From: Harmothoe impar
Taxonomy: Eukaryota; Annelida; Polychaeta; Phyllodocida; Polynoidae
Length of the DNA: 64,000 nucleotides
Direction of reading: 5' to 3'
Assembly (NCBI GenBank): GCA_947462335.1
Contig: OX381704.1
Span: 21,158,442-21,222,441 of the forward strand
A model generated the notes under the pieces. The model was not told the origin of the DNA, did no database searches, and worked only from the letters and a program-made list of their open reading frames with translations. Positions 15,000 to 41,900 of this stretch are shown here, one piece after another (within the stretch, counting starts at the first letter, position 1; each line of letters opens with the position of its first letter). Position numbers and translations under genes: made by a program.

Positions 15000-17900
15000 C
15001 TGCAGGGGGATATGTATTTTAGATTATTACTCAACTCAGGAACATTGGGGAAATGAATATTCACTGTGACTACTGCAAGTAAACTGCTTCACTGTGACTA
15101 CTGCAAGTGGACTGCTAACTTATTGAAGTAACACTGAAGACTATTGGTAATACGTGTATTAATGAAGTGTATGATTAAATGGCTAACTTAGTCCATCTCG
15201 GGAGCCTGTCCCATGGCACCTGCGGTGCCACTGGACAGGCTCGCTCTACGTCGTGACTTGGTCACAGGCCACTCTATCTAGGCTCGCCGTGGTTAAACGC
15301 GTAGACCAACAGCTATTCATTCTTAGCTGTGCACCGTCATGATGCATGAATGCATGATGATGATAAAAGGCATGATACATCAAAGCACTATGCTTCTCTT
15401 AAAGGGATACGGTAGTATAGATTTTGTAGATATTTTATAATGAGTGTGGCAACTTACGTGAATGTGCAGACTTTGTTGATGAGTTGGCTGTAGTCGTGCG
15501 GCAAGGGCATGAGCTGGTTAACTTGTAGTGGGTACTTTACGAGCGAGGCTGTACCCGCCGACAGTTTATGTACCGTAGACGCTTCACTGCACCAACTGTA
15601 ACAGGCAAACGGTTAACTTATAGATGAAGAGACACAAACTTCTAAGTCTTAAAGACTATAAATATAAGACTTAAAGAGAAAAATATATCACATTGGGCAT
15701 AGAAAAAAAAAGGTCCAGGAAAAGAATAACTAGCAAAATCCCATGCATAGGAAGTGTTCATCATTTAGTAACTTACTTTTGTACAATCTGGTGCAGTAGA
15801 GGTGAGTCAGGTTCAGTGAGTAGACTGACAGGACACAGTGGGAGGGCCAGGTAATGGCACATGGCCTCCATCTCATCCTCGCAGTGCTCTGCACAATGGT
15901 AAAGGTTGTCCATCGTCATTGATCATAGAAGATGTTAAAATGTAGGGGTCCAAGCATGGACCCTTGAGGTACTCCATGCATATTATCATTGAGCTGCTCA
16001 ATAGGATTTACACAGTTCTCTTGAACTATAATACATGTGCTTTGTTCAATATATTAGTGCAAACTCTGATAGTTCTTGTGATTATATTTCATGGTTTATC
16101 TTATCAAAAGCCTTGGGAAAGTCAGGAGATTGAGAATGTAAGTGAATTTCCGTCTGCTCTATATTTTAGAAATTCAATAAAAAGGTGCTGTGCTGCATTC
16201 GTACATCACTCCGACTCAAAGAGGTCGATACACTCCTGAAGACATGAATGGTGAATAGACTGGTAAGGGCTGCACTGTGCAACTCTTAAAGGTTTAACTG
16301 GAAGGTATAACTGATAAACGAGACAAGATACTCTATATCAACCCATGCTACACTGCAAGGATTTATTCATTTTGAATGTAAGTCTGTCCTACCTGTGAGT
16401 TTTGGGGGTGGTCGTACCCCGGTGAGGTAGTGGAAGAAGAGGGTAGCAGAGCGCAGGAAGGGCAGGCAGGCTGTGCGGATGTAGACGCTGAGATGCCAGG
16501 CTGACGGCACCTTACCCACCTCCATTCTGTAAGCACAGATGATACCAGTCGTGTTAATATATATTAAACCTTTAAGGACGGCCACTTGTTATCATGATAC
16601 ACAAGTACAGTGCCCGCAAGTTACCTACTGGCACTGGGTTGGTGCACCATGCATAATTTTGCCCCTTAGGGTTGGCATGATGCATGAATGCAGCATGCGG
16701 TAGTTACATGCTCGGGCTACATTTATGCATCATGCCAGTAAAGGATAGTACATTAAAGCATTATGGTATTTTTTAAGGGTTAATCACGTTCTGACTTCAC
16801 TCACTGTGACTAAACACAGTATAGAGATCTGTATACTATATTATACCTACTCATAGCCACATTGTATGAATTGGTACTGTGGACAGGTTTTGTAACCAAG
16901 TAGGTAGTATGGATGTAATGGACAACTTACTTTGCATAATGCCGTAGTTGAGTGTATATCCGCACCAAGGCTTCTCCCTCGGCATCTGTCTCTGTCTCCA
17001 TATCCTCCTCTGGAAGTGGACATTAAATGGGTTTTATTATCTGTATTATATTTCTGACCTATCATGCTATGGCATTTTTAAGTTCAGCTAGAATCATTAC
17101 TGTAAAAAGTGGGTTCTTATTAATTTTAGATACATCTTACCCGGCCCTTATACAAGACTGGCGAATAACCAAGACTAGACAAACTCTAGTGCATTTATTT
17201 TTACCATTTTATTTCAACTGGTACTACTTTGACTGTCATTACGTTAGTTGAACTCACCAAAGTTGGAGAAGTCAGCAGACAGGAGTATCTGTATCAGGTG
17301 TGCGGTCAGCACCAGTTGTAGCACATGCTGGTCGTTCAGATCTCCTGTCGGTATACGTGACAGGGCGTTGGGCGCGCCTGACGTGGTGTCGTCCGTGTAG
17401 AGGGCGGGCAGGGAGAGACACAACATGACCAGGTAGTGGAACATCTCAATGTCCAGCACGGCCGGCGTCTCCTGCAGCTTCTGACTGCCGGCCCCCAGGA
17501 TGGTCGCTGTAGGGGTAGATTAACACAGATTATAGCTACTGACACATGGCCCTCAGATTAACACAGATTATAGCTACTGACACATGGCCCCCAGATTGAC
17601 ACACATTATAGCTACTGACTCCCGACCCCCAGATTGACACACATTATAGCTACTGACTCCCGGCCCCCAGATTAACACAGATTATAGCTGCTGACACCCG
17701 GCCCCCAGGATGGTCGCTGTGGGGATAGATTAACACAGATTATAGCTACTGACACACGGCCCCCAGATTAACATAGATTATAGCTACTGACACCCGGCCC
17801 CCAGGATGGTCGCTGTGGGGATAGATTAACACAGATTATAGCTACTGACACCCGGCCCCCAGATTAACATAGATTATAGCTTCTGACTGCCGGCTCCAAG

Positions 17901-20900
17901 GATGGTCGCTGTAGGGGTAGATTAACACAGATTATAGCTACCTCGCGTATAAGCCTAACTCGCGTATAAGCCGCACCCCGACTTTGGGCCGATCCTTTAA
18001 GCCGCACTAGCGGTCTGATTATGGTGACTTTAGCACTGTACCATAGAAGCAAAAACTTGCGTATAAGCCCCACTCCGACTGGGCCGATCCTATAAGCCGC
18101 ACTGGCGATCTGACTCGCGTTTACCGCACTGAAATCCGGCACCCAGATTAACACAAATTATAGCTACTGACACCCGCCCCCAGGATGGCCACTGTAGGAG
18201 CAGATTAAAGCTGCTATACTACTTGGCACACTCAAACCTATATTATCTTCATTTGTATCTCAGATGATTGTATAACCCTTTCCCTATTATAATCTGTCAT
18301 TTATTTTGACAAGAGATTCTTAATATATGCAAAACAAGACTCTAATTCCAGCTACTATTTATATTCTGGTGGGCTTTGATAAGTTAGTGTTAAAAAATGA
18401 CACCAGGTGGCAGCACTGAGTGGACTGCTACCTGCAAGTCTTGCATCGCTGATCTTACCAACAGAGTCTACTATTTCCTAGTGTAACACTGCAGATGGCG
18501 CCAACTTGTTGATATAATTAAGTGCTGAATAGAATGCTGGAAGCATTCTATTTTTTCTGATCTTTATCTTTGAATTTAGCACAGTTAAAAGCCACAAATT
18601 TGATTGGGATCTTACCAGTACACTGCACTAAGGAGACCCTTTATAAATATGCAGAAAGTGAACATTCTATATATCTGAGGTAGTATGGCAGCTTTAATAT
18701 ACAACGCTTGTTGCTCACAGCTCCCCTACCCCCGCCAAGAAGCATATAGGGTAGGAGGTCTCACTTAGCACCTCGCCTATGGGCATAGTGTGACAAGCCT
18801 CCCCCCTCTAGCCCCATCTACCCCCCCCATGAAAGTGGGCGACCTTGTGTGCTCACTATTGAAAACTATGGAGAATAGGGAGTTTTATGTGGTTCTTTTG
18901 AGTCTTTATTAGAGTGATATCAAATGAAAAGAAGGGGTTTTCTAGACCAAAAAATCCTGCTGAATCCAAATTTTGTGATCTTGATTCCCAAAAACTGACC
19001 AAATCCACTCAAAAATGATGTTTGATGATGTAAAGTATTAAGAAAATGTACAAAATAATGTTGAAAATGTTTGGGACATTACCTATATATCAACCTGTCA
19101 ATCAAAATCAGTACCTCAATCTACCTATTCAAAATTGGCCTATCCCTCAATCTGACAGGCTTTCTTCCTATGTATCACTCTACCTATCCTGCACACTGCC
19201 TATCCCTCAGCCTACCTATCCCTCAAGTTACCTATCCCTTGAATTAGAACCTTCTCTTGGATTAGCTCATCCCTCCAAAAGCTTAAAGGCTAAAGCCTAT
19301 CCCTCTCCTTGCTACTCCTGCCCACTTTCTGTGCCTACCTATCACTGAGTCTACCTATCCCCAATATGCCTATCACCCAACCTACCTATCCCTCTTGTGA
19401 CTATCCCTCACTCTGCCTATTTGCCATGTTTTATCAGCTTTATCCATATTTCAACTATGCCTATCTGCTAAGCATAACATTCCTCACCATGTCCACTATG
19501 ATTTGTACCTATCCTCGATTTTCCTATCACCCAGCCTACCTATCCCTCAATGTGACTATCCCTCACTCTGCCTATCCCTCATGTTTCATCTACATTCAAT
19601 TTATCTAATCCCACATGGAGCTCAACATAACATGTCTACTATTTCTATGTATAAGTTAATTTTCCTATCATCTAGTCAGCCTATCCTTCATTGAGCCTAT
19701 CCTGGCATATCCCTCATGCTTAACCTACACATCCCTCAGACTCCCTAGCCCCCATGGGATTTACATATCCCCACCTTGCAAGATACCCTCCATATCTATC
19801 TCTCACACTGCTTATTACCCACACTACCTATCCCTCTCAGACTTCATTTTGCCGAATACCTATCCCTCATGTTATGACTAGCCCTTATTCTGCCTATCCC
19901 TCATACTCCCTATAACCTTTTACCTATCTAAGGTCTCCCAGCCTTCCTTTTTCCCAATGTACCTACACTATTCCTTAGTAAACATACACCTAAGGTACCT
20001 ATCCCACAGTGTACATACACATGTACCTTCATCTACCTATCACTCATGCTTCATATAATTGAGTCTACCTATATCCTCAGAGTGCCTATCCTTCATCCCC
20101 TTCATGTTTTTATGTGAAGCCCTTAATGTATCCATCTATACTACATGTTGCATACCCCTGCCCCCGACATTTCCCCTGTCCTCCTATCACCCATGGCCAA
20201 TATCTGCTGATGGGTAAATAGAGAAATGGGTTAAATGAAGAATATACAGAATGTGTGATATGCAGCATGGGGGATAGGAAGATAGAGAGATCTAGAGTGA
20301 GCAAGTAGGATAGATAAAGAGAAAGCTAGGCATCTTCAGGGCAGGCAATGTCAGGCATAGATCTGGACAAGCACGAACATTTAAGAGGCTAAGGGCTGTG
20401 CACAGAGACATGAGAGATATGCAGGCTGAAGGATAGGCACAGAGGGGGACAGGCATAATTTATAAGAGGCAGACTGAGAAATAGAAAGAGAGAACAGAAC
20501 ACAAGGTGAGGGATATGTATACGACAGGTTAGACACACTGAGGGATATACCGCAACAGCATGAAGGATAGGCATCATGAGGGATAGGTAGGCTGAATGAT
20601 ATGAAACTTGAATGATAGCTAGATGGAGGTATATGTGCAAGTAAACTGTAGGATAGATACCTTAGGGGTATGTTGACTAAGGAATGGTCACCATAGGTAA
20701 CAGTAAAAAGTTATAGGGAGCATGAGGGAGAGGCAAAATGAGGGACAGTCATAGAGGGCATGAGGGATAGGTATTCAGGAAGATCAATTGTGAAAAGAAT
20801 AGGTAGTATGTGTCTAATAAGTAGTTTGAGAGATAGGTATGGAGAGCATGTTTCAAGGTGGGGATATTATGTAAAAGCCATGGGGCTAGGGAGTCACAGG

Positions 20901-23900
20901 GATGTGTAGGTTAAGCATGAGGGATATGACAAGATAGGCTCAATGAAGGATAGGCTGACTAGATGATAGGAAAATTAACTTATACATAGAAATAGTAGAC
21001 ATGTTATGTTGAGCTCCATGTGGGATTAGATAAATTGAATGTAGATGAAACATGAGGGATAGGCAGAGTGAGGGATAGTCACATTGAGGGATAGGTAGGC
21101 TGGGTGATAGGAAAATCGAGGATAGGTACAAATCATAGTGGACATGGTGAGGAATGTTATGCTTAGCAGATAGGCATAGTTGAAATATGGATAAAGCTGA
21201 TAAAACATGGCAAATAGGCAGAGTGAGGGATAGTCACAAGAGGGATAGGTAGGTTGGGTGATAGGCATATTGGGGATAGGTAGACTCAGTGATAGGTAGG
21301 CACAGAAAGTGGGCAGGAGTAGCAAGGAGAGGGATAGGCTTTAGCCTTTAAGCTTTTGGAGGGATGAGCTAATCCAAGAGAAGGTTCTAATTCAAGGGAT
21401 AGGTAACTTGAGGGATAGGTAGGCTGAGGGATAGGCAGTGTGCAGGATAGGTAGAGTGATACATAGGAAGAAAGCCTGTCAGATTGAGGGATAGGCCAAT
21501 TTTGAATAGGTAGATTGAGGTACTGATTTTGATTGACAGGTTGATATATAGGTAATGTCCCAAACATTTTCAACATTATTTTGTACATTTTCTTAATACT
21601 TTACATCATCAAACATCATTTTTGAGTGGATTTGGTCAGTTTTTGGGAATCAAGATCACAAAATTTGGATTCAGCAGGATTTTTTGGTCTAGAAAACCCC
21701 TTCTTTTCATTTGATATCACTCTAATAAAGACTCAAAAGAACCACATAAAACTCCCTATTCTCCATAGTTTTCAATAGTGAGCACACAAGGTCGCCCACT
21801 TTCATGGGGGGGTAGAGGGGGGGGGGGGGGCTATAACATAGGAATCTACCGAGTCGGACATCCTACCCTATATAATCCTTGCCCCCGCCCCCATTTCAAC
21901 AGCGAAAAAATTCCATGGAGTAGACATACCTGAGAGTAGTGTGACGCAGTGTTTCTTGACGATGTCTGGCTGGATGACCTGACTACACACGGCAGCAAAC
22001 CGCACCACCGCACTCAGACACTCCGCCTTCCTGGACGCCAGACCGCCAAACAGCGGCTTACCCTCGTCACGCAGACTTTGTTCTGTCAAATAGAGGTGGA
22101 ATTAACTGTTACTTTAACACTTGACTCCTCATTCATAAATGTATTAATTTTCTGCTTTGAGATGGTAAAATACTTCACGATTTAGAGATACGTATGTTGC
22201 CTTAAAGCAATATTTCTCGTCATGATGCACAAATGCAGTGCAGGCGAGAATTGCATTGCATTTATTTAGCAATGCATCAGCCCCGTAGGGTGGGCATGAT
22301 ACATCAGGTTGGATGCATCCATGCAGGAATGCATCACAACGACAAAAAGGTTAATTGTTGGAAGAGTTAGAAGTGACAAAAATGTGTTTACCTGCAGCCA
22401 TGACAGTGTAGGCACACGTGGACCACGCCATGACCGGTACCCGGATGTTCTCGTCATCTGGGTTCACTCCCAGACCAACCTGAGCGACAGAAAAAAGGAT
22501 TATAATATTTTTGTTAATACATGTACTCAAAAATTGTGTAATTTCCTCCTAGTACAGTAAATATTTATCCTGTAGAGGCAACCTTGAAATAGTCATGTAC
22601 TGCCTCTTCAGAGTTTGATGTGTAATAGTTGTCTTATACTGAGTTTAACTAAACTCGGCGACTTGCCATGGTTTCTCAAAACCTTTCTTTTTTCAATCTA
22701 ACACCCCTATATTGTAACAACATGACCACTCCATAACATCCCAATAACAGCGTCTTATTTCATGGTGAATACGGCCTATCAATGCTAAGGCAATGGGAGG
22801 GTCGTATGCAAGTAAAGCGTGAAATAACCCTCGGCCGTATTGCACGCTCTGGCCGTATTGCACGCTCAAAATTCAAAATGGCGGCCGACGGAAGTAAACA
22901 AACATCGCGGAAGTTAACAAACATCGTGGAGGTAACCAAACATAGCCTGCAAATCTATTTTAGATCAAAATACCCTGAAATAAACACAGAGCGTCACTTA
23001 AAAGTCACCTTGTCAGTGGTTATCTCACTCGAGCTGCCTGCCCCGTACTGCACTAGGCCTGCGGCCAGCGTGCAGTACGGGGCAGGCAGCTCTTGTGAGA
23101 TAACCACTGACTCGGTCACTTTAGCGTGCAGCTCTGTCTATATACTTACTGCGTATACGTCCGAGGCATATTTCTTCAGCATCTGCATAATACTGTCTGA
23201 GAAATGATCACTGCAACAGGAAAACGACAGGTGTTTTATTAGGGTTAACAAGATTCATGGTTTAAATATAATTTGCCCGGGCCTTCCTAATAGTAAGTTA
23301 CATATATAGGCAACTTGTGGTACGTTGACGTACGTCAAACACAGTGAAGCTTTTCATCGTTATTATCTGATTTACAATTTGAATTGTCATCTTCAAAGAA
23401 TACACTTATCTCTGACGGTAGCCATTATATTATTTCAAATAGAGTTCTCTTTCATTTATATTATTCATATGAAAATACATTTCAGAACCCATTAGCCATT
23501 ACCTACCTTGAGTCTAGATACACATATTCAAAGAGAAGCTGGAAGTTTTTGGCGACTGAATCGGCCATCATCTTTGTGACTCCAGACAGCGGGCACGGCA
23601 CAAAGAAAAAGGCATCTTCATCTGTAGGTGACGACAACACAAAGACATTGTTAGTAAAGAGACAAAGGTCCACCACAGAGGCATACATCGACATCGTTCT
23701 ACATGATTGGGGCCTGGGTCGTATCACATTAGGTGAATAAGATGATGAGTCGACGTGTCTTAGTCTAAAATGAAGAAAATCCCAAAATCGAGCATGGTTG
23801 CAGTCTGCATGAATACAGCCCAGGTGAGTTACTGGACTGCATTCAAATCCATCATACCGATAGTTCGATAGTCTAAACCCCGTTGGCTCGGAATGATGCA

Positions 23901-26900
23901 TGCATGATGACCACATGGGTTAAATCTTCAAAGACTGCATAGTGATTTCATGTCCTATGCTCTTTGGCGTCATGGGCCATAAATACTGCTCTGGCATGGG
24001 GGTTGATACAATCACAAAGGCCCGGCATGATGCAATATGTTGGTGCATCATGAAGAGTTGAGTTGAGACTACTCACCATCTGACTCCCTGTCCTTGTGCT
24101 CCTGGATGCTGCCTCGTACCGTCTTCTGCAGCCCGTCCAGCCAGTCGTTGAGGCTCAGCTCGATGTGCTTCCTGCCTGACGGGTTGACAAACGACACCAG
24201 GGGCGGGATGAGGGGGATCACCGTGTTACTTAACGTCTCACACAGCGGACACAGGAACTCCACCTTCTCTACGTCGTAACTGAGGCGCTGTCTGTACCGC
24301 GCGGTCCGCCGCCGCCCCCGCACAATGCCGTCATAGAACCTGGGGGGAGTTAAGGTGGTGATAAGTCCAATTCTGAACATCTTATAGCAAGGTAGGGTGG
24401 TGTGTAGTAGTGCTTATCATGATTTATAGCATTACAGTGCCATTGTTTCGTTCCAGTGTTTTTACATTCCCTCACATGTTGTCGCCCTTTAACATTCCCT
24501 CATTTTGTGGTATTTCTGCTGTCTCCGCTACCGCTATCATCTGTCCTCGCTACCGCTGATTGGCTTTCATCTTTCTGACCCACCTTTTTCAGGAGATCTA
24601 CTCTCATTTAAATCAACATAATATTTGGGTGATTGTCCCAGTCCTTGTCCCGTGTAGTACTTACCGCTGCCAGCAGGAGGAGTGCATGACGTGTGTACAG
24701 GTGGTGGTGTGGGCGCCCTCTATCAGCGTGCTGGCTACAAACAGTGGGTCGTGTGTGTCTCCGTCCGTCATCACCGTGCCCCGGTCCTTGGACAACACCG
24801 TAGACCTACAACACATACATGTAATATGAGCAGTCCATTCACATTTAGTACTGTTCATACTGGAATCTGCAATATCAGTTTTCAATTTCAACATTGCTCT
24901 TTAGTTTACTAATGGTTCTGTTGTTTTGGATAGGGGTTTTGACTTTCAGACATTTTACTGATTAATAGCAGTCAAGCGTTTACTGAGTATGTATGATAAG
25001 ACCATTCCGTCACATGAACTCCAGGCATCATGTGAGGTTTGCTCGTTCTTTGGCCTTTATAGTATAAACAGTTTGTTGAGAAGTGTTACCGTTGTGTGAA
25101 GGCTGCTATGACCATGGCTGGCGCGCTGTGTGTAATGATCTGTTCCTCCTGACACAGGATACACGTCTGTTTCATGGCGCCTGTCGGTGAGACCGTACTC
25201 CGGTTTGGTCCCAGGGCTACCGGTTGCGTGTCCTCCTCTTCCATGATGCTAAGAAAATAAGATGAAAATTCATTTACTGTACACATTTTTCTTAGTTTTT
25301 TTACAATTGTTTTCTTTTAGAATTTAATGCAGCCCTGGTGAGGAACTCATGACGACAAAGGGCACTGTGCATTTAAGTACTATCCTACCTTTAAAGGGTT
25401 AAAAGTTTATGACGTACCTTAAGTCCATATCTGAAGTTGCAGGCTGCATTCCCCCGCCGGTGTCGGTGGACTGGAAGAGATACGAGTTCTCCTTGATAAA
25501 GTCTCGCTGCATCTTGGACATCTGTGCCATGATGCGGGCGCGGCGCTGGGCGGCCATCTCGGCCTTCTTCTTGCGCTCCTCCTCCTGCTTGGTGTCTGTG
25601 TCAGACGGGGCCGAGGACGGGCCCGCCTCCTCAGAGTCCATGAAGGTAGCGTCATGCTGCCCCCGCAACTCACGGAACGACTGCCGACAGAAATGGATTT
25701 AATGCAAGAAGAGTTTTCTCGATTCATTTTTTATAATTTTGCTAAAGATCAACCATTGAAACATCCTTATAAAAGGTCATTGACACGAATTCAAATTTAT
25801 ATTTTGATGTGCAAGAGATTCTAGCTCTTGAAATTGAAGTGATGGAAGAAACCTGATTTTCTAATAGTTCCAAAGACTGAGCGCTCACCTTGATGACCCA
25901 GCTGAGCAGGGCCTTCTGCGAGTCGGAACTCAGGTTAGCGTTACCCACCAGCGTCTCCAACACAGTGAACAAACTCCGCTTTCCTGAAATATAAAGTGAT
26001 CCTACAGATTAAATTTATTCAACATTTTAGGGTTATTTATTTTTTTGATAAATGTCTGCATGACCTAACTACACACGACAGCAAAACCTCCGGGAACGGA
26101 CAAACATATCTGTCATTACCCGTTACATGCCTGATTATGCATGCGTCTGTATTATTTTTTTCATCATAATACCTTATAGATATGTCCTTTCTGTTTATAT
26201 AGCTACTACCGGTGTTAATAGTTGTAAAACTGTTTTCGTACCTGAGGTTGCCTTCTCCATGAACTTGAAGTCTTGTTTGCCTAGTTCATGACTTCTACGC
26301 TCCTCATGTAGCGCAAGGCCTATCAGATGTAGCACCTACAAGCAGATCATATTCAAGGTGAAATACATATATAATTTATTAAAGAACTAAAAACACATGG
26401 GTTTGTTTGTGTTTTTCAACATTTTTTAAAGTCAAATTCGGATTGCCAAAATGGTCCCTCCCTTTTTGTTCGAGAACTATAACACCGCTGATTGTTTACT
26501 AGTCTGATTGTTTACATGTTTTACTTCTCGTGGTCGCAATCAGCACTCCACTCTTTTTTCTATCAACAATAAACATAGAGATACAATATACAGAGATAAC
26601 ACCCCTTGGTCAATAAAAAGTAAGAAATTTTAAGATTTTTGTTAATTTTCTGGATTAATAGAATTTAACAAAAGTATAAATTCATACAATAGTAGAAAAA
26701 TGGGGTTCTCATCTGAAAAGGAAAACAGAAATCCTTTAAATTCAAAATCGAGAATTTTAGTTAAAATTTACATACCCTTTCAAACTGGTTCTCAGACCAG
26801 GAGCGTGACTTGGCGGCGGCGGTCCGCTCCAGGACGTTCCTCATCATACACAGCATGACGTCCGAGTCCAGGATGTGGGTGAGTTTAGAGAAGCCGGCCA

Positions 26901-29900
26901 CGAATGGGGGTGGGTACGGCGGGGGCAGCGCCTGGTCCTCACTAGGAGCGTTCTTCTTCCTCTTCTTTTGTGCTTCCTCAGCCTGGAATTAAGAGCATTA
27001 CAGTAAGGCCTTGCGTAGAACCCGCAGCTTGTATGCATAATCAGAGGCGCAGTGCAGATTTTAGGATTCTCCCACGGTAGGGGTGCAGCTAAAAAAAATA
27101 AAAATTTCGAAGTATACTACAGTACTGAAGTGGCCAAAATCAGACCTCATGACATTCTTGGCAAAATATCCGTTTTCCCCTCTGGATCACATTGTACATG
27201 GAGCAGCCACTCACCTTGGACTGCTCTGCCCGTATGTAGTGGTAGAAGAAGGGGTTGTAGTCCTTGTAACACTCAGGTTTCAGCTCGTATTGTCCTTTGC
27301 CGCCCTCCCCGGTGGGCTTCCAGAACTTGGCCACCTCGTGCACTGTGTCCTCGATACCGGTCTCATGGTTGGGCTGGAGGAAAGACATGAGGTAATTGAT
27401 TATATGTTAAAGGTATGAATGGTTCAAATATTTACCATGTAGCCCCTGGCGAGTAACTCTCCAATGCTGCATTCATGCAATATAGGGATATATCGCATCA
27501 GCATGATTTAGTAATGCAGCGTCCATGACCCACTCATGGGCACCGCGGTGTGCATCAGATCGTCATTAAAAATTAAGACTTACATCTTCGGGCAGTGCCT
27601 TGGTGAGCTCGCTGTGTGCCATGGGTTGGATACACAGTTGGTGGATGATCTCCCGTTTCACAGCCTCTTTCCCGTCCACCTCACCGACCCCGATCGTGAA
27701 GCGCTCGCTGACCACATGGATGAGCAGCAGCAGGAACTCCTCCGCCACCGTCACTGTCTGTCGTACCAGGTCCTCTACTGGCAGCTTGATGCTGTCGTAG
27801 TCCTCTCTGTAAGGGGAGGGAGACATTATACATCGGGACATCACTGTCTGTCATGTCCTCTACCGGCAGCTTGATGCTGTCGTAGTCCTCTCTGTAAGGG
27901 GAGGGAGACATTATACATGGGGACATCACCGTCTGTCATGTTGTCTAGTGGCAGCTTGATGCTGTCATAGTCCTCTCTGTAAGGGGAGGGAGACATTATA
28001 CATGGGGACATCACCGTCTGTCATGTCCTCTACTGGCAGCTTGATGCTGTCATAGTCCTCTCTGTAAGGGGAGGGCAGACATTATACATGGGGACATCAC
28101 CGTCTGTCATGTCCTCTACCGGCAGCTTGATGCTGTCATAGTCCTCTCTGTAAGGGGAGGCAGACATTATACATGGGGACATCACCGTCTGTCATGTCCT
28201 CTACCGGCAGCTTGATGCTGTCATAGTCCTCTCTGTAAGGGGAGGCAGACATTATACATGGGGACATCACCGTCTGTCATGTCCTCTACCGGCAGCTTAA
28301 TGCTGTCATAGTCCTCTCAGTAAGGGAGGGCAGACATTATACATGGGGACATCACCGTCTGTCATGTCCTCTACTGGCAGCTTGATGCTGTCATAGTCCT
28401 CTCTGTAAGGGGAGGGAGACATTATACATGGGGACATCACCGTCTGTCGTACCAGGTCCTCTACCGGCAGCTTGATGCTGTTGTAGTCCTCTCTGTAAGG
28501 GGAGGCAGACATTATACATGGGGACATCACCGTCTGTCATGTCCTCTACTGGCAGCTTGATGCTGTCATACTCCTCTCTGTAAGGGGAGGGGAGACATTA
28601 TACATGGGGACATCACTGTCTGTCATGTCCTCTACTGGCAGCTTGATGCTATCATAGTCCTCTCTGTAAGGGGAGGGCAGACATTATACATGGGGACATC
28701 ACTGTCTGTCATCTCCTCTACCGGCAGCTTGATGCTGTCATAGTCCTCTCTGTAAGGGGAGGGAGACATTATACATGGGGACATCACTGTCTGTCATGTC
28801 CTCTACTGGCAGCTTGATGCTGTTATAGTCCTCTCTGTAAGGGGAGGGCAGACATTATACATGGGGACATCACCGTCTGTCATGTTGTCTAGTGGCAGCT
28901 TGATGCTGTCATAGTCCTCTCTGTAAGGGGAGGTAGACATTATACATGGGGACATCACCGTCTGTCATGTCCTCTACCGGCAGCTTGATGCTGTTATAGT
29001 CCTCTCTGTAAGGGGAGGGAGACATTATACATGGGGACATCACCGTCTGTCATGTCCTCTACCGGCAGCTTGATGCTGTCATAGTCCTCTCTGTAAGGGG
29101 AGGCAGGTTGGAGACAAGGTAAACCAAATATATTTTACAGCTATAAAGGTGGTGTTCAACACACATCTACTCACGGGCACTGCATTAGTACATCATGAAG
29201 ACAAATATTGCCTTAATACAACGTGCCATCCATAACGATTTAAAGGTAGAGTGTGACAAGACGCTGACTTACTTGATCCAGTTGAGGAGGCAGTACTTGT
29301 TAAGGAGGTGAATCAGGAACTCGTTACTCTCCATCAGCGCCCCGGCCGCCTGAACACAATCAATGTATCATGAACACTTTTAGGTGTTTTTTTTTGTGCA
29401 TCAAAAAAGTTAGCATAAAGCAAAATGAATGTTCATTAGATAGATTAGCATTTAGTACTCTCTTGAATCCATGTGACACCATAGGTTATGGCTTTGATAG
29501 GGATAAGAACACATAGATGACAAGGGATGCTTACCTGCAGCATGAGGAGGTCCTTGTCGGCCATCTCCTTACGGCACCGCACATTGCTGTAGAAGTAGAT
29601 CTGGGCCACAAACACACGGACAGCAGTTAGTTTGTGTCACACTGCATCTACTAAACAGGGCACTAGATTTTCGCTACATGACAAATGCTAAGGCGATTCT
29701 AGGCAACTCAAACAAAGTCTTTGGTATCAGCGCACCTTATTTTCGTAATTAAAAAACTTTAATCAAGGAGTTTCTTCATCTAACTTTTTTTCCTTTTTTT
29801 TTGATTAAAAAAAAGAATATACCGGTGTATACCAAAATTGAATTTCTGAGCGAGCCACTCAAGAAAATGTCTACGGATTTTCTCGCACCATTTTTCTAAA

Positions 29901-32900
29901 CAAGAATTGAAAATCTACTAAAAAGGAAGAACCGCGTAAAACTGTGCTTGTTATACATACCTGGTTGAGAAGTGAGTAGCCGTTGCGCCGCCACATGCCG
30001 GCTTGGCTCTGTGCGATCATCACCTGCGTCCGTAGTGCGGGCTCCATGATCTCGACCAGACTGAGCTTGGTCTTGGCCTGCAGCTCGGGTGGTGAGAGCT
30101 TCAGTCTATGCATCAACGGGTACAGACCTGAAACACAACCACTCCACATTGTATATACTAGAGAACACAAAGAATGCATTGCAGTGCTTATTTATCCTTT
30201 AAACCCCCACCACCCTTCTAAAGGCCTAGTGTGCTGGTCCTCAGACCACTCCGACTGTTACTGGACGGGTAGCAAGGATTGGGCCTTTACGACCCGTCCA
30301 AACGACATAGTTATACCCTTTATCGTCATGATGCTTAATTGCAGCTCTGTAGCTGATGCTGCATTCAAGCATCTTGCAGACTCTTGTAATGGGGTTGATA
30401 CACTCCCGATGGGTCAGCATGCTGCCCCAACGTTGTGCCTGCAATTTTTGGGTCGTCGTCATGGTGCGTTGCCAGCACTGCCATTTAATTTGAAATACTT
30501 TAAATCGAAAACAGAAATTTGACTTTGAAATTCCAAACAAAATAAGTTGAGCAGCCACCACGTAGAAAGGCCAATCTGTGCATCCTGTATGAAGCATCTT
30601 TCCTGCATCTACATAGATACAGGTTGAGTGGATTCCTACTTACCAGCCAATAGTCGTGTGACCGGTAGGTGGATAGATACGGGTTGAGTAGACACATCGT
30701 ACTTGATACACTTGGCAGAATGACCCGCCACAGTGTGAGTCTCCATTTTGATGTTGTCGAGTCGGTCACGGCACTGGAAGAGCGCCTCGTTGGTGGCAGT
30801 GAAGGCTTCCACCAGCACAGCCTCCTGTACAAGGAAACGTGTGAATTATCAGTACTGCCACAACAATTCAGCGTCCCATGATTGAAAACATGAATAGAAC
30901 ATCTCTATCGACCATGCCCAATTTGGATCTTTTTTAAATCTGGAAATTCTCCAAATTGACAATTCTCATTATTTCTGATATCATCACAGGACTTGACTAC
31001 TTGTAAATTTGGGGTTGTACGGTCGATGTAATAGCACTGCTTCTCATCCTCTCCTAATTTACTTCTCACAATATGATCATGTACAAGAACTAAAAAACTC
31101 CTTACATCTGTGGAGCACCACTCAAGGATCTCGGCGATGTTATCGGCCAGTTTGATCTGCAGGTTGAAGGCCCCGTCCCACTCGGGCTCGTACTCGATGT
31201 GCTGCCCGGTCTGCCGCACCACAGAGTCCATGCACTGCATGCACTTCAACAGGTCCAGCATGGAGCGGAAGCCGTTCATGAAGTTGGTACGCAGCCGCTC
31301 GTTCCACTCCTCAGGCAGCGGCTTCACCGTCATAGCATACCTGGTGGTAGGGGAGGTACATGGTGTGTGTAATGTACATGTCAGTATCAATGTAAGCTCT
31401 TCAATACATATAAGGTATTTTACTTCCATGATCATATCTAGGGCGGTCAATGTGATCTAATCTAAAGGGACTGGGTATGAGAGCACAGTTTGTACTGTTT
31501 ACATTAAACCTCTCCCCCAACCGCTAAGCTTGAAAATGCTGTAACACAATATCATAATGCTTAGCAACTACTTCAGAAAGATTATACCACTCTCTCATGT
31601 TAATTCTTCAGGTACTGTGTGTATTAAGCTATATATATTCTACATTGTAAAAGAGGACTGAAGTTCCATGTAAAAGACGAGGCACTCACTTGAGGTCGTA
31701 CAGTATGTACTGGGCGCGTCGGAAGGTCTGGTTCCCTGAATGCCGCTCCAAGGAAAACTTCCCTTGGTCTGCAACACAGAAAGATGTGCACCATGTATCT
31801 ACATTTCTACAGTATGGGAAGATGTGCCACATGTAGTGACATTTCTATAGCATGAAAAGATGCAAAACATATTCATAATTTTTGCATGCAAATAAATGCA
31901 TCGTGTGCTTTCATTCCAGAACTAAACTGTTCCTTTTCTTTTCCCAAGTCATGGTCTGTCCGGAAGGTTCTTTAGTTTCCTTCTTATACCATGGTTGGGA
32001 CGATGTTACTTTATGATAACATGCCGTTAAGGGGTTGAAAAGAGTAAAAGTTTGAGAAGACTCACCATTCTTCTTGCTCTCACATTCAGTGAGGAAGGTG
32101 TCGAGGATGATTTGCAGCAAGTTGTGTTCAGATATCAACATCCGCGCCTGCAATAACACAATAATCATTATCATTGCCAATCATTAAAACTTGTCTAAGG
32201 TCTCAATTGATATCATTATAATCTAATGGCATGAAAGGGATACGATATACCGATATTTCTTATGTCTATTTCTGAAAATCAAATAGGTGTTTTTAAATTG
32301 ACTATTTCTGAAAATTAAAGAAAATCCTTGGGCCTGGTGAGGTTTTTGGGCATGAGAGTTTTAATAAACCGGCATGTTTCGAATGTTATTTTGCAAAAAA
32401 TTTCAAAGATCTTGGCTATCTGTGTGATTTGTCTACTCATGTCTATGTCCAACACAGACTAAATGACAAACATTCTCCCATGTCACAAAAACGTCTTAAA
32501 TCGAAATTAGGCAGTGCATATTACTCTGGGTGTATCCACCCTGTGTCAATAAAATCAAAGGTAATTTCCATCTAAAACGGCTTTATAGTATATTTTGATA
32601 TACATAGTCATTTATATATGTGCCATCAGTATGCTTTACATTATAATGTTAAACATGATACAATTCATTGTAATTATAATGGGGAAAAAATCAACACATG
32701 TACACAATCACAGAGTTGGCACTCGTCCCACTGTAATCTTTATATAGATCCTTCTGCGGTCGATTCTGGAGAAGCGCCAAGAACCCCCCCCCCTACCCCT
32801 GCTCACCCACTTCACCACCAGAAAAAAACACTAAAATATGGTTTGGCATGCTGCCAGAATATAGGGTTAATTATTGTAACACCAATCCGACAACATGGCT

Positions 32901-35900
32901 AGAGTACATTCTTGTCTATAAGCCTAACTCGCACATAGGCCGCATCCCCAACTTAATTATTTTAAGTCGGACAGGTGGTGTGAATATGGTCGGGTGATCC
33001 ACCAGCACTGTATTGGTGCATCATGACCGTCCCCCTAACCCACAAACCTACATCGCCCATGTTTTCTTATCTTGGGAATCCATGATTGCTAACAATAGAG
33101 CCTTTAATAGAGGTTCAAAGTATAAACATATAAGATGACAATAGACGACCCTATTTGAACGTCTAAAACTGTGATTGTTATCTAAGATAATCAATCTATG
33201 ACAGCTTGTTAAGGATCAATTCACCACCTTGGATGTCATATACAGGCTACTGCAGACAGGTACCATACCGTCGCGTTTAAGCGCCGGTTATTGAATAAGC
33301 GCCGGGGGTATGGGGGTCACGAAATAATTCTTAAGCACTAAAAATAGATCTTGAATAAGCACATGTCTTGTATAAGCGACGGGGTAACCAGTTATAAGCG
33401 CCGGGGCGCTTATACACGACGGTACAGTATTACAGATATGCCATAGACCCCGGCTTTATTCACATACATTTAAGACAGAGTGAGGAGATGGTAACAACCT
33501 ACCCCTGCACGAAGCTAACAAGTCAATGATATTACACATGTATTGGTTAGCGTCCGGCTTCATACAAACGTTTCAACATCTCAAAATAGTTTTCCCTTAT
33601 TCTAATGTATTAAAACCTTGTCTATACGACGACTTTTGGGGAAAAGAATCTTATGGGAAAGAAAACAGTCGATAAAGCTGGGGTTTGACGGTATCAATTT
33701 TCAAAGCATGAGAGCAGGGGTATATTTTTCTAAAACAAAGAGTTTCCATTGCATAACTTCAAGACGGCTTAACTCCCACTTTCAGGAGAGCTCATCCTCA
33801 GATACACTGTCTATCATTCCCGAGAATGCACAGCACACTCATCCCATGCATCTTAAACTGTTAACTTTATCACCACAAAAAGTAGTTGTCTATAAAGCCT
33901 CACATGCACCATAATCATAACTTCTCACTAACATGCAAAGATTCTACTGTGACATCCCTGCCCTCCAATTCACCATGAACTTAATTCATATTTAACCCTC
34001 TTCAAATAAACGTTAGCTTTTTAAAGTGGGTGATTATTTTATTCTTTTAAAATTCTCTCATAGTTTCCCCAACGACTTATTAAGCTCTGTTGAATAAATC
34101 GATTTCAAACAGCAGAAATAAACTCATTGTGCCAACATGCAAAGAACAAGTCTTAAAAGATCCTACCCTAGCCCACCCCGACCTTTTCCTCTTTTACCCT
34201 CTGACCCAAGTCTCCTGCTTCAACAACTGTGAGTTAAAACACAACCTACCAATGTGGGCACAGTGAACATTTGCACCGAGCTGGAGGCCATACTGACAGC
34301 TCGTGCGTGATCGTCCTGAATAAAGGCGTTTAGGAGAGCGGGGTAGTTCTACAAAAAAGACGGAGAGATCGGAGCGTCAAAATGGTGGTAGACCTACCAG
34401 GGTTGGCACGGTGAATATCTGGACTGACTCGGCCGCGGCGCACACGGTGAAATCATGGTCGTCTATTATAAAGTTCCTCATGAGCTGACTGTACATCTGT
34501 AGAGGACGAGATGGACAACACGACAACCGGTCAAGAGGATGGCTTAACCCTTTAAGGATGACATGATGCATCAAGGCTTCATGTTTGTTTGTCTTTGTGA
34601 TGCATGAATGCAGCACCAACAAGAACTCCATTCATGCATCATGACAAAATAGGGCATAGTGAATTAAACATTATGCTCCCCTTAAAGGGTTAAAAAGTGT
34701 AGAGCCACAGTGTATAACTGGCCAGCTTCCTCCTGCGATTAATCACTGCAGAATAGTTGGGCTAGCATGCAAAATTTTTCAAAATGCTGATAGATATCTG
34801 TATTTCACACTTGCCATCATATTACCGGTGGGTACCCGGTATTTCACATGTTTATATAGCAACCATAAAATTATATATACACTTTATAATAGATACTGCA
34901 AAATACAACAGAGTGAGTGGGAATACTTTTTGAACCTGTATAACATTATTCAAAGAGCGCCTTTAGTGAATAGTAACTTTAGATAATCAATGCTTTATTG
35001 TGCATCGTATACTACCACAATATCATGCAGTTCTGTCAATAAGACTCAAATTCACCTTTCAAATTCAAGAGAAGAAAGACATTAAATATTTACCTTTGTG
35101 AAGAGAATTGCAAATTGTTTCTTGCAGTCCTGGTCCATGAGAACTCTGAATAGAGAAAATTAATTAAGTTCCAGGAATAGTATATGTATGAAATCACAAT
35201 GGGGGTATCAGAACATCTGAGGAGGGTGATATTTATTTCTTGTCATAATACACCAACGCACTGTCGGTGAGGTACTCAAGTTGGTGCATTAAGGGCAGGC
35301 ATAATGCATGAATTCCGCACTCGCGAGTTAATCAATAGGGTTGCATTCATACATCATGAAAACACATGGGTGTAACGTATTAACGCACTATGCTGCCCTC
35401 TAAGGGTTAACTCACCCAGCCATGAAGAGTTGGTGACTAAGGATCCTGGCAGCCTTCCACAGCTGTGTGTCTGCTAACATGACGCGTTCTACCAGAGACG
35501 CCTCCTCCCCGTCGTGTCGAGCCATCGACAGCTGACAGAACAACTGCCGCAGCCCATCTGAAACACAAAGTAGTCATGTTTTACAAATGTACTTGTTATT
35601 TGTATGGACTAGGCACAAATGGTCGTGGCAGAGGCATGCTGCAAAATTACAAGTATCTATATTAGAAGCCTTCAGCCATTAATTATACATACCGTTTTCG
35701 GTGTAAGGCGCTTATAAAATTATTTTTATCGTATTTTTAGTGCTTAACAGTTTAATTGCCCCCAAAATCGTGAAATGTGAGCCGTTGTTCTAGTCTAAAA
35801 ATGCCCCCAAAAAAAGGGGGGGGGCGCTTATTACGTTGAATACGGTATTTCAAACATTTTCGATACACATTACCATAAAACTTATGCATGAGGTTTGAAA

Positions 35901-38900
35901 TACCGACGATGTGCCTGGTTCATTCATACTAAGAGTACAAAGGATATAGGGTATTAAAGCACTATGCTCCCCATAAAAAGGTTAAAACTAATGCAGCACA
36001 TACCAGAGTAGTTCATGGTGTGCTGCAACCAGCCGAGTATCTTCTGTGAGAAGGTTTGGTGGGAGACGACTGAGGTGTGCATGACCAGCACCTTGAGTGG
36101 CTTCCCGTTGTACCGCGATGTGTTCTTCTCCATCAGCTGACGTGTTACCTCGCACTCATTAAACGCACCGTTACGGATACAGCTCCGACCCTACAAACAA
36201 CACATTGTTTTTGAAATATAAGATTTACTATGCTCGGAGATGCCACTCGCTTGTCAACAAAAAGTAGGCAATCCTGGAAAATAGGTCATGAGAGTAGAAA
36301 ATAGGTATTGTTGCACTGCGTGCTCGAGTCTACCTGTAGTCGCCCCAAGCAGTTTTCTAAATACACGTGCTCTAAATCATATGTACTTGAATCCAACTCA
36401 CCTCACGGTCTACGGTGGTGGCGAAGTCTACAGCCTCCTTGTGAGTACAGTCTATCGCCCGTTGTAACGACGAAATCACCTGAGTAAAAGGAAACCAAGG
36501 GTAATATTCAATGTAGAGTCATTGAGAATTTCGTGTGAAGAACAATTTGAAGGACATATTAGGCCTTTATGTCAATGTTTCTTTTCTATGAATATGACAC
36601 AGACATCAAGAATAATTTATGATTCATGTGACAAAAAGTATGCTTGCAATCATTCTTGTTTTAAAACCTTCTTTTCAAAGGAAAACACATGGATATGATT
36701 GAAACTTACCTGATCATAGGTGTGTATTTCGTCATTGAATAGTATGGTGGAGTATGTGTTGTCTACATGTTCGGGTTGCACGGTGGCCGGGAGGCGGTCG
36801 GGGTGTTGCCAGGTGAGCATGTTGACAGCGTACCTGACGGTGATGAGGAACACCTGCCGGGCCCGCACCACCATGTCCTCATCCAGGCGCTGTACTGGGT
36901 CCTGCAGCAACAAGCCACACTTACACACTTAGTAAACAACAACAGGCAAATAGGGAGCCTACCCGAGAATGCAATTCATCTGCTCACTCTCCATCCTACT
37001 CTCTGCGTTCAACTGTAGAAAACAATAGACCTAACATCTGCTAGGAGAATGATGTTTCACGACACTCCTGACCCTATATGCCCTATGCTGAGCCATTCCC
37101 ACCATGCCGTGCTAGTAATGTATAACAAGGGGTCGACCTTATAAGGCCGCTTAAAAAAAAGATTGAACGTGTGATTTACATCGCAAATGACTCAGGGTTA
37201 GGGTAATTATTAAGTGATTGAATTGAGTGATTGAAAGGTTAAAGGTGTACATCAACTTGAATCAACATACACCACAACCTACAGACCCTACATCGCCACC
37301 TTGTGACTGTCTCAACCTGGTCTCACTCGTGCACTTCTCTTGAATCCTGGCTACACCATTTCGGATAGCATACCCAAATTGTGCATTGCAGGAACTGACA
37401 CAGACACTACCCATAGGCCTGCACCACACAACCTATAGGTCGCATGATGCAGGTGCCCTAAAAAGTCACACTGAGCGAGGCGAGCTGCGCAAAAAAAGGG
37501 TATACTTGGAAAAAATTTGTACATTGAAATTTTTTTAGGTTACTTGAGCCCTAATTCAACTTTTTTTTTAGCCAAAGCATCCTATATGCCTAAGACATGG
37601 CAAATTTTGTTACAGGTGAATTAGCAATTTACAGGTGAGCCAGCAACCAACTGAGCCATTTTTGTGACACTTCTGTCAACACATTAAAATAATTCAAGAT
37701 AATTTAAGATACTTGCAGAGAGATATCCAAAAAAGGTCTTTCAAAAAACGTCTCATCTAGTAATACAAGATAGTCCCCATTGACTTTGCACTGGAAATGT
37801 GTGGACTGTAATGTAGACAAATGTCCACCTTAGTAGTTAAGAGTTTAATTTTGCAGATACATGTTTTCCTGTTTTTTGGTAACATTCTTTAAATTGAATA
37901 TTTTGATGGGTTGGAACAAGGTATTTGCAATATCTTTGGGTCTTTCATGTAGGTGAAGGTCTGATTGTTCAATACCATCTATGATTATGTTTATAGGATA
38001 AGTATTTCATAGGTAAAATTCACTCTAAAGTAGAGTGACTGACTATCGTGAAATGCATGCTCCAAACCGTCGCAAAAGACTCAGGGCGGTAACCCTGAGT
38101 CAATTATCATTTTTAATATTTGTCCTTGTTTTTTCTTGAGAACTTAAATAGTTGTACTTTCTTACCTTGCACTCCTTGTCCTTTTTCGCAGCTCCCCGTT
38201 TATGAATATCACAGAAAGGTTCAGATTTCCAGGCCTCCACATCTCCGCAGTCACAGTAGCCGGCCCCTCCCGATGTACTCATCTGGTAAGTACAAAGAAA
38301 TGGGCTTTTAGCAACAAAAATATATGTAATACTACTATAGAGTATTAACCCTTGAAGTACCAAATGACGCCTTATGGTTAATGCCCATGTGACGTCATGT
38401 CAGATGCACATGGCTCAGTCATATGAGTTTGTAACATTTCAAACGTCTTTGACCGGTGCCGTCTTTGACCGGTGCCGTCTTTGACCGGTGCCGTCTTTGA
38501 CCGGTGCCGTCTTTGACCGGGTATGTGATTAAAATGAAGAAAAAAGTAGTATATAGTAAAGAAATTTAAGCTTAAACTTCTTCATGTAATAAACAGCCTA
38601 TGGTTGTTTTACCCAATTAAAAAAAAATAATTTTAATGCACATATTAAGGGTTCCTTTTGTTTTTTTTTTCTTCAGCCGGTCAAAGACGTCACCGGTCAA
38701 AGACGACGCCGGTCAAAGACGTTTCAACTGTTACAAACTCATGAGACTGAGCCAGTAACATAAATATATGAAATATATCAATTTTAAATAATGCCTCGAA
38801 ATGATGTATTATAACATATTACACAAAAAATTTACCCATTTCTTTACTATACACTACTTTTTTCATCATTTTAATCACATACCCGGTCAAAGACGGCACC

Positions 38901-41900
38901 GGTCAAAGACGGCACCGGTCAGAGACGTTTGAAATGTTACAAACTCATGAGACTGAGCCACCAATGGAGAGCAGTCATGCATCACCCTGGTCCTTTTGGG
39001 AGTCAACGTCAACGTCATAGGGTCCCCCCTTAGCCTCGGCCAGCATCTACCGTATCCTACCAGTTGGATAACATGGGAGCAAGCAGCCATCTCTGGTCTA
39101 ATACACATCTTTAAATTACCTCTTTCAAATAAAGGTGTCAATACATAGCAGCCCTAATTAGCCCCTTTGGTCTAGATAAAATCAGTCTGTAGTTGTGTGT
39201 ATTGCCCAATGCACACATTTTGCGCCACTAAACTGGCGGAAAAGCCAAAAGAAGCTCTGTCCCAGCCCATAGCATGCAGTCTCGGACTCCCATACCAACA
39301 CTGCGCCGTGTCCCTCTGCTGTGTATGGTATGGGAGCAGACATGCATTTCACTCGATACACAGTTTGGTGGCGCAAATGGGTGTGTATTGGCCAATACAC
39401 ATCCAAGTACAGAGAGATCCTAATCCATATCAAATGGGTAATAAAAGTAAATGGGGGCTACTGTACAATTAAGACATATAACTGACAGAGGTAATGTAAA
39501 GATTTGGATTGGGATGGGATGATGGCTTGCTCCCAGGCTATCCAACTGGTAGGATAGGCGCTGGCCGAGACTGCATAGCATGGCATTGGGCTGGATCCCC
39601 CTCAAAAGTAGCTCACCAGTCATGTGTTCATTCATTATCACGACAAAGAGACATAGTCCATTATTGCACTATGCGGTGCTAAAAGGGTTAACATCTTTGT
39701 GTATCTGATGGTTAATTGCATTCTGGATACAAAAGTCAGAGATTTATTGGTAGGGCCTGTGGACGATATGATTTGAGCCTTTTTAGGCAAAAAAAAAGGT
39801 TGTGTTCAGGTAACATGGCCCAAAGAAATTCGGTAGGTAGGTCGATTTTTTTTTTTGTAAACCAATTTTTTTCAAGGATTTTAAGACAAAATTCCTCTTC
39901 ATATAATTTCCGGGGGAAAAAAATTCAGTAAATAGATGTGTTTTTTTGTAGAAAAATCACAAAAATGCCTTCAAAAAAAAAAAAAAAAAAGTAATTGGGT
40001 AGGGCGAAAAAAATAGGGTCGTTAGGGATACTTGAACACAACCTTTTTTTTGGCCTTATAATAGAAACAGAACGATAGCCAATATACTCACTTTGTAGCG
40101 ATGTTTTCGATGAGCACTGTGTTGAAAGCACTCAATACACAACACACAGGTGGGATCCATGCCGCAGTCCCGACACGAGTAAGTGGGCTCTCCATTCTTA
40201 AACACCCGCCCGCACAGCTGGGGTGGGTTATCCCGGTCCTTCAGTGAACGGAGGATGGCATCCGGCTCTGGTGCTCCACCACAGAGGAAGGATTCAAGAG
40301 GGCGGAACAGAACGCGCTTGGCTTTGCGCTCCTCGCGTGCGGGGTCAGGGTCGAGGGTGGGGATGTAGACAGCGGGAACATACTGACTCCAATGTTTGTG
40401 TAGTGTGGCTTCTAGGTCTCCCTTGGCATAAGCCTCTTGGAATTCCTGTAGAGTGAAAGAATGGTTATGTGGTTATTGATATCAAAGAGGAATGGATACC
40501 GGTAGTCTATCAAAGCATGTTTACTTCTAAGTTTGTATCACAATCATTCATAGTTCCTACTTTTGGAGCAAAATGAAACAATGACTGTATGTGTAAGGGT
40601 AGATCATATCTGAAAGACTAAGCGAGACGCTTCACTCTTTTAGCTGGTGAATTCGTGGTTGAACACAATTGTGAAACTTTTACCATGATAAAATAAAAAC
40701 GTATTTGAAAAAAAAAGAGCAAAATATCAGACTTGAGAAGATATAGCTAGATACTTGCTCTCAATTGTGACCCCCTCTTGATTATCAATTATCCCTACGC
40801 TTTGTCCAAAATATGAGATCTCTTAGTCTTACTACTCTTAGTAGTCTTACCTATTGAACTATACAGCCTATTGACATTGGTTTGAGATGTGTATTTCTGT
40901 TGTGATGTAGATCTAAGGGAGTGTTCATTTATTAATTACAGCGGGGGGGTGGTGAGATTTCGCGTGGAGGGGCGAAATATTTTTTATGCCCTCCCCTTGA
41001 GAGTGAGTGGAACGTTTTGCGCCCCTCCGCCGTAGGCGCCGAAAATCCCCCCCCCCCCCCCCCCCCACTCATAATGACATATTTCAACTGTTTACGCTCT
41101 CAGTGAGAGTCTCAGCCTGCACTGAAAGTGAGATCAGAGATGTGTGAAATCCGGCTGAAAGCTGACACCTACCTTTGCCTTGGTTTCTGATATATGAAAC
41201 CTTCACTTTGCTTTCCAAGTTAGGGGGCCATAAGTTCCGACGAAACCCACTGAGCTACGCTTGTGGGTTTCGCCGGAGCTGATTGGCAAAGTGACTTTGA
41301 AAGTCTGGGGTCCTCTTTGAGCCTACCAAAAAGCGCAGATGGCACCACCGTCTACGGGCGTCCTACGCTTTGCGACTCAGCCTGGGTCGCATTCACTCCC
41401 AGCACAGAACTAAACCCACCATTATGATTAGTTCCTTGCTCCCAGCTTTTGCTATCCAGTGGCGGCCCAACCTACACGGAGTCGTAGGTTGGGTAGGCTC
41501 AACTAGGGGGCCATATGACGGAGATGTGATATGATATGTGGCCATTATATGTGATATGATCACAGGTGTGCCATGATCTAGATTCTACTCATCTATATTA
41601 TAATAGTGTCTTAGGGAGTGCTCATTTTTTAACAACAGGGGGGGGGGGCGGTGAGATTTCGCGGGGAGCGCGCAAATTTTTTTCACCCCCTAGAGGGGTC
41701 GAATTTTTTTAACCCCCCCCCGGCAGGCCGAAAATCGCGCGCGTTTGCGCCCCTTTGTAGCATAGTAACGCACGGGCTTTTCCCCTCAAAACAGGTTGAA
41801 TTTTTTTGCCCCCCCCCCAAGAGGGGTCTGAATTTTTTACCCCCCCCCCTGGTCAAGGGGTCCAAATTTTTTACCCCCCCCCCCCCCAAATCCACCACCC

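What the first reader, a model, noticed from the sequence alone, without database searches (positions are those of the whole stretch)
27774..29104. Fifteen extra copies of a 3' splice site plus exon start in one UBR intron
Seen directly: an 85-bp unit containing the polypyrimidine-AG acceptor and the first roughly 40 nt of exon 17 is repeated head-to-tail 15 times upstream of the real exon. The array therefore offers 16 near-identical acceptors to the spliceosome. Because 85 is not a multiple of 3, choosing the next acceptor upstream shifts the frame and meets a stop at 27681-27683 inside exon 17, while three extra units would restore the frame. Copy number could thus act as a rheostat on the amount of functional UBR. 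One unit (28467, 90 bp) carries extra exon sequence, so the unit boundary has varied. I recall 'mirage' minisatellites overlapping exon-intron boundaries in an amphioxus alcohol dehydrogenase gene; this may be the same class.
Basis: partly seen in the sequence, partly recalled or inferred. Interest (0 to 1): 0.88.

Follow-up and report, generated by a model that had tools for sequence, protein, structure and literature searches.

The report
Worm gene with sixteen splice acceptors
In a UBR2-type ubiquitin-ligase gene of an animal that is most likely an annelid worm, one exon's start and its splice signal occur 15 extra times in a row in the intron before it; the cell would probably splice over all 15, which makes the gene a natural test of how splicing picks one of many near-identical signals.

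Summary
Confirmed: 15 extra copies (10 of 85 bp, 4 of 86, 1 of 90) of an intron end plus exon start precede exon E16 (27806-27584, minus strand) of a UBR2/UBR1-type gene. Fourteen of 15 upstream acceptors score level with or above the real one on a matrix from the gene's own introns; one lost its AG. Corrected: the duplicated exon part is 58 nt; the 90-bp unit is the likely ancestral form, the other 14 lack 5 nt. Refuted: three units do not restore a protein. All 15 upstream acceptors give a premature stop, as shuffled DNA also does. The window is not amphioxus: UBR2 trees place it with annelids. A smaller array of the same kind, with 4 extra acceptor copies, precedes exon E29. Boundary duplications are not enriched (2 of 72 boundaries; 236 of 1895 intron positions), and AGs decay at the array's average rate. 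So this is a 'mirage'-type minisatellite, known from amphioxus genes, in a likely annelid, probably spliced over as intron. The decoy form of the rheostat is not excluded but unsupported. No RNA, population or whole-genome data were available.

The parts
13733..40421 (-). UBR2/UBR1-type E3 ubiquitin ligase gene, 36 exon positions modelled from the first matched residue; the N-terminal end is not modelled
   Evidence: matches to UBR2 chain 9wbv_A from residue 32 to 1755; spliced model of 1753 residues without internal stop
29273..29349 (-). exon E15, donor CAA|GTAAGT
27770..29103 (-). mirage-type tandem array as delimited by TRF: 15 units of 85 (10), 86 (4) or 90 (1) bp, each an exon start of E16 plus an intron end with acceptor; includes the start of the real exon
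28403..28492 (-). unit 8, 90 bp, keeps CTGGT and the only fair donor-like site in the array (CTG|GTACGA)
28318..28324 (-). broken acceptor of unit 10, CTTACTG
   Evidence: score 1.32
17507..18230 (-). second array of the same kind before exon E29: acceptor and exon start repeated at 18191, 17908, 17812, 17716, within 38- and 96-bp repeats
17258..17506 (-). exon E29

Best explanation
This is a mirage-type minisatellite: the last ~30 nt of an intron and the first 58 nt of exon E16 of a UBR2-type gene stand 15 extra times in tandem in the intron, and the array is likely spliced over as ordinary intron. Shown: the array, the gene, the intact decoy acceptors (14 of 15) and the premature stops (15 of 15). 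Inferred: the founder was a 90-bp tandem duplication across the 3' splice site, of the form kept in unit 8; one copy lost 5 nt (CTGGT), and that form spread by unequal exchange or slippage to 14 of 15 units. Inferred: the spliceosome takes the exon-attached acceptor because only that one lies within a normal exon length of a strong donor, so exon definition favours it. Predicted: leaky use of a decoy gives a stop 99 or more nt before the next junction, hence nonsense-mediated decay.
For: Array and unit anatomy. Only acceptor 16 gives a UBR2 register: 185 of 188 homologs have 15-23 residues between two anchors across the junction (window 19), 3 Branchiostoma models have 35, none 40 or more. 15 of 15 upstream acceptors give stops. 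Every decoy would make an exon of 308-1507 nt against 52-263 nt for the gene's 35 internal exons. No GT inside the array scores better than 4 of 36 true donors; the best is in unit 8 and the others beat at most 2. No sign of selection: AG kept at 14 of 15 unit ends with 14.00 the mean of 84 column pairs; exon- and intron-derived parts diverge 0.034 and 0.042 per site. Boundary copies not enriched: 2 of 72 against 236 of 1895 intron and 148 of 1500 random positions. A second array of the kind in the same gene. Regular splicing past mirages is reported in amphioxus (PMC3087553, PMC3902484, passages).
Against: No RNA evidence. Fourteen decoys are as strong as the real site or stronger; before the second array's exon one decoy (18191) scores 8.48 against 1.62 for the real site, so silence needs something beyond local strength. 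The passage on human F7 explains the choice by oriented scanning; scanning from the 5' side would here favour the first decoy. The founder junction is unresolved: the intron-derived core occurs nowhere else in the window.
Confidence: 0.78

Rival explanations
1. Copy-number rheostat: the decoy acceptors compete with the real one, each use would lead to a stop and decay, and array length sets the amount of functional UBR2.
For: 14 of 15 decoys score level with or above the real acceptor; 15 of 15 give stops at least 99 nt before the next junction; human F7 intron 7 has a variable number of 37-bp repeats beside a donor (PMC6627357, passage).
Against: No junction or population data. Stops arise in shuffled arrays as well (all 15 in 984 of 1000), and AGs decay at the average rate. 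Amphioxus mirages are reported not to disturb splicing. The frame-restoring form is refuted.
Confidence: 0.09
2. Assembly artefact: one or two real units were multiplied in the assembly.
For: No reads could be seen; tandem arrays are often mis-sized in assemblies (general knowledge).
Against: All 15 units differ from one another, with 5.9 differences per pair on average, which copies of one unit would not. Exact copy number stays open.
Confidence: 0.05
3. Pseudo-exon: unit 8, with acceptor and donor-like CTG|GTACGA, is sometimes included as a 40-nt exon.
For: Donor-like score 6.4, above 4 of 36 true donors.
Against: The same donor-like site stands in real exon E16 at 27766, where its use would cut the exon; 40 nt is shorter than the 35 internal exons modelled (52-263 nt) and shifts the frame to a stop.
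Confidence: 0.04
4. Coding variable repeat: upstream acceptors add in-frame blocks to a tolerant linker.
For: Each unit is open on entry in the exon's frame, the 90-bp form is 30 codons, and the linker is poorly conserved (28% against 60% identity).
Against: 15 of 15 upstream acceptors meet a stop.
Confidence: 0.01

Closest known systems
Amphioxus mirages (Adh3, troponin C, globins BflGb6 and BflGb9, PGBD5; PMC3087553 and PMC3902484, passages)
   Same: Tandem duplication of an intron end with acceptor plus exon start; splice signals kept in many units; last unit attached to the real exon.
   Different: Here in a likely annelid, 85-90 bp and 15 extra units (BflGb6: 150-160 bp, 6 and 3 units in two haplotypes); length variation and RNA not testable here.
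Human factor VII (F7) intron 7 37-bp repeats (PMC6627357, passage)
   Same: Near-identical splice sites in a tandem array beside an exon; the exon-attached one is normally used.
   Different: Donor sites instead of acceptors; the passage names oriented scanning as the mechanism; copy-number variation is stated there and untested here.
Earthworm metallothionein intron 1 repeats (PMC12783039, passages)
   Same: Annelid genes with long tandem arrays in an intron, classed by length as minisatellites, and extra exon-4 copies absent from the transcript.
   Different: In the passages seen the arrays are not said to repeat an acceptor with exon start.

Membership tests
[quoted passage not shown]
   15 units with intron end and exon nt 1-58
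Mirage minisatellite | Splice signals kept in many but not all units | tested here: met
   AG kept in 14 of 15 upstream acceptors
Mirage minisatellite | Regular splicing not disturbed | not testable with these tools
   no RNA data
Mirage minisatellite | Length instability between haplotypes or in soma | not testable with these tools
   one assembled sequence only
Mirage minisatellite | Found in cephalochordates (all cases seen in print) | tested here: not met
   UBR2 trees place the window with annelids, Branchiostoma with chordates; a taxon, not a defining trait of the structure
Copy-number splice rheostat | Decoy sites used, with output depending on copy number | not testable with these tools
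   no RNA or genotype data; the frame-restoring step fails
UBR2/UBR1 E3 ubiquitin ligase | Similarity along the whole protein | tested here: met
   UBR2 9wbv_A residues 32 to 1755 matched in order; 1753-residue model

The most novel reading that the evidence does not exclude
The array is a tunable splice decoy: homogenisation has spread a 5-nt deletion that strips the units of their donor-like site while leaving 14 strong acceptors, so the units act as acceptor-only sinks whose number sets the yield of functional UBR2 mRNA, and hence the strength of the N-degron pathway, and can vary between individuals or cells as the array changes length.
Probability: 0.09. Interest if true: 0.86.

Novelty: new member of a known kind. 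Interest (0 to 1): 0.5.

Why it matters
Choice among duplicated splice sites is usually studied with built constructs. Here a natural gene offers one real acceptor and five decoys identical to it over 25 nt, at known distances and without strong donors of their own; counting junction reads would separate exon definition from first-acceptor scanning. It also likely extends boundary-spanning minisatellites from amphioxus to annelids, and two such arrays in one gene suggest that they may be common where minisatellites are. They bear on intron gain and on length-variable splicing.

Tried and rejected
Amphioxus origin: suggested by the mirage analogy, rejected by homology and trees. Rescue of the frame by three units: rejected. 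Selection on the decoys: sought in AG survival, in exon- against intron-derived divergence and in stop content; none found. The 5-nt deletion as a selected loss of a donor: not supported beyond its spread, since real exon E16 keeps the same site and one event can spread by homogenisation. Higher-order repeat: mean differences by lag run from 3.75 to 7.10 without a clear period, and adjacent units (6.1) are no closer than all pairs (5.9). A source for the intron-derived core elsewhere in the window: none (15 matches with up to 3 mismatches, all in the array). A mechanism aimed at boundaries: not supported, 2 of 72. The binomial value 0.004 for depletion against intron positions is only a guide, since positions within an array are not independent; exons E1 and E36 were not in the exon mask and so counted outside it, and copies were sought on the same strand only, at 27 of 36 matches or more.

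Papers: 10 of 10 searches used. Passages seen of PMC3087553, PMC3902484, PMC6627357, PMC12783039, PMC3778950 (nothing on F7 repeats) and PMC11285346 (no exon pair for UBR2). A paper asked for by a DOI from memory was not held, so Adh3 and troponin C facts come from citing passages. The two homolog searches list the best 120 of 1282 and of 942; homolog counts use the 189 distinct proteins listed.

Full report
Observation. Tandem Repeats Finder reports an array at 27770-29103, period 85, 15.6 copies, with the highest score of the 49 rows for the window. On the minus strand 16 acceptors follow one another, the last at 27806. Between them lie 15 units: 10 of 85 bp, 4 of 86 and 1 of 90, unit 8. Acceptor 10 (28317) reads CTTACTG and has lost its AG. 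All 15 units are distinct; pairs differ at 5.9 positions on average, adjacent units at 6.1.

The gene. Comparing frames of the minus strand with solved structures gives UBR2 (9wbv_A) and UBR1 (9wbw_A), in order, from about 40.4 kb to 13.7 kb. tblastn with homologs and a junction search with phase and stop checks give 36 exon positions. The spliced model reads 1753 residues without internal stop, with either of two versions of exon 8. The intron is 182 nt to the first acceptor and 1466 nt to the real one; the median of the 35 introns modelled is 349 nt.

The source organism. A homolog search with the window's UBR2 listed spiralian animals first and Branchiostoma UBR2 at 46-48% identity. In a 35-row tree the window pairs with the tubeworm Lamellibrachia (SH-aLRT 99). 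In a 30-row tree it falls with Lamellibrachia, Capitella and an unnamed JGI protein (98), then Owenia (87), then two nemerteans (96), while Branchiostoma sits with the vertebrates. That Lamellibrachia, Capitella and Owenia are annelids is general knowledge. These are quick trees of one gene: an annelid is likely, the species unknown.

Anatomy of the unit. The exon-derived part covers exon positions 1-58. Unit 8 matches 54 of 58; the other 14 units lack CTGGT at positions 38-42. Since the coding exon has CTGGT, the 90-bp unit is the likely ancestral form (inference). The intron-derived part is about 30 nt ending in a pyrimidine run and TTACAG. The flank upstream of the array shares about 16 nt next to the acceptor with the units (read), and the core of the intron-derived part occurs nowhere else in the window, so the founder junction is not resolved.

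Acceptor strength. A matrix from the gene's 35 other acceptors scores the real site 7.37. Fourteen of 15 upstream acceptors score 7.36-9.15; acceptor 10 scores 1.32. Units 2, 5, 9, 14 and 15 carry the same 25 nt before the exon as the real site. Local strength thus cannot tell real from decoy. Donor-like sites are poor: CTG|GTACGA in unit 8 reaches 6.4, above 4 of 36 true donors, and the next best beat 2 of 36 or fewer. The shared 5-nt deletion removes that site from the other 14 units; the real exon keeps it, at 27766.

Consequences of choice. Each of the 15 upstream acceptors leads to a stop, in the next unit or the one after, or for acceptor 15 at 27683 in E16, always 99 nt or more before the E16/E17 junction. 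The claim that three units restore the frame is right in arithmetic (255 nt) but fails, since acceptor 13 meets TGA at 27967. Shuffled arrays give all 15 stops in 984 of 1000 cases, so the stops are no sign of design. Only the last acceptor gives a UBR2 protein: 19 residues separate two anchors in the window; of 188 homologs with both anchors (189 examined), 185 have 15-23, three Branchiostoma models 35, none 40 or more. The stretch is poorly conserved (28% identity against 60%), which may be why a duplication there was tolerated.

Why the last acceptor (inference). Every decoy would define an exon of 308-1507 nt, beyond the 35 internal exons modelled (52-263 nt), and none but unit 8 has a fair donor of its own. 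Exon definition then favours the exon-attached site. Human F7 intron 7 shows the mirror image with donors: of several near-identical repeats only the most upstream site, the one at the exon, is normally used; the authors name oriented scanning (PMC6627357, passage). Scanning from the 5' side would here pick the first decoy instead, so that explanation, if general, speaks against mine. From memory, classic constructs with duplicated splice sites showed that exon content matters; no call supports this.

Is it selected? AG is intact at 14 of 15 unit ends; the mean over the 84 adjacent column pairs is 14.00. Exon- and intron-derived parts diverge alike (0.034 and 0.042 per site). Boundary duplications are not enriched: 2 of 36 acceptors and 0 of 36 donors have another copy in the gene, against 148 of 1500 random positions, 236 of 1895 intron positions and 7 of 525 exon positions. 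Random tandem duplication, tolerated on the intron side, suffices.

A second array in the same gene. Exon E29 (17506-17258) is preceded by copies of its acceptor and exon start at 18191, 17908, 17812 and 17716, three of them within 38- and 96-bp repeats. The 38-bp subunits lack the acceptor stretch (read). The 4 decoys all lead to stops, three of them although the added length is a multiple of 3. The real acceptor is weak on the matrix (1.62); the decoys score 8.48, 1.62, 0.05 and 0.05. The start of E29 aligns without a gap with Lamellibrachia.

What is known. [quoted passage not shown] splicing is reported as undisturbed, and somatic instability is reported for Adh3 (PMC3087553 and PMC3902484, passages only). 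Searches for 'mirages' with minisatellite (5 papers, three of them not opened and off the subject by title), for minisatellite with splice acceptor and related terms (19 papers, one of them opened) and for annelid, minisatellite and splice (2 papers, one opened) showed me no such array outside amphioxus other than the F7 donor repeats. Most subscription papers are not in that library.

Verdict. It is a mirage-type minisatellite in a likely annelid UBR2 gene, probably inert intron. The rheostat is not excluded in its decoy form but has no support; its frame-restoring form is refuted. It deserves attention as a ready natural experiment on acceptor choice.

Noticed in passing
window 34250-34496, minus strand: Two adjacent homologous exons of 99 nt each (8A 34496-34398, 8B 34348-34250; 53 of 99 bases alike), both matching UBR2 residues ~391-434, with only 49 nt between them: a likely mutually exclusive pair, too close to be spliced together. 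Of 184 homologs scored, 87 are nearer A, 90 nearer B, 7 tie, which suggests an old pair.
   Followed up: partly
window 17507-18230, minus strand: Second mirage-type array in the same gene, before exon E29, with 4 extra acceptor copies.
   Followed up: yes
window 18822-21812: Inverted repeat with 931-nt arms that are 100% complementary, 1129 nt apart, inside the 4423-nt intron between E28 and E29: a very young palindrome, foldback element or assembly effect.
   Followed up: no
P0032, P0033, P0083 (Branchiostoma UBR2 models): Three amphioxus UBR2 models carry 16 more residues than model P0029 at the protein position of the E15/E16 junction: the linker varies in length there too.
   Followed up: no
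window 6277-6648, 38444-38927, 43495-43895, 48984-49411: Other minisatellite arrays (periods 14-41 bp); the window is rich in them (49 TRF rows, many overlapping).
   Followed up: no
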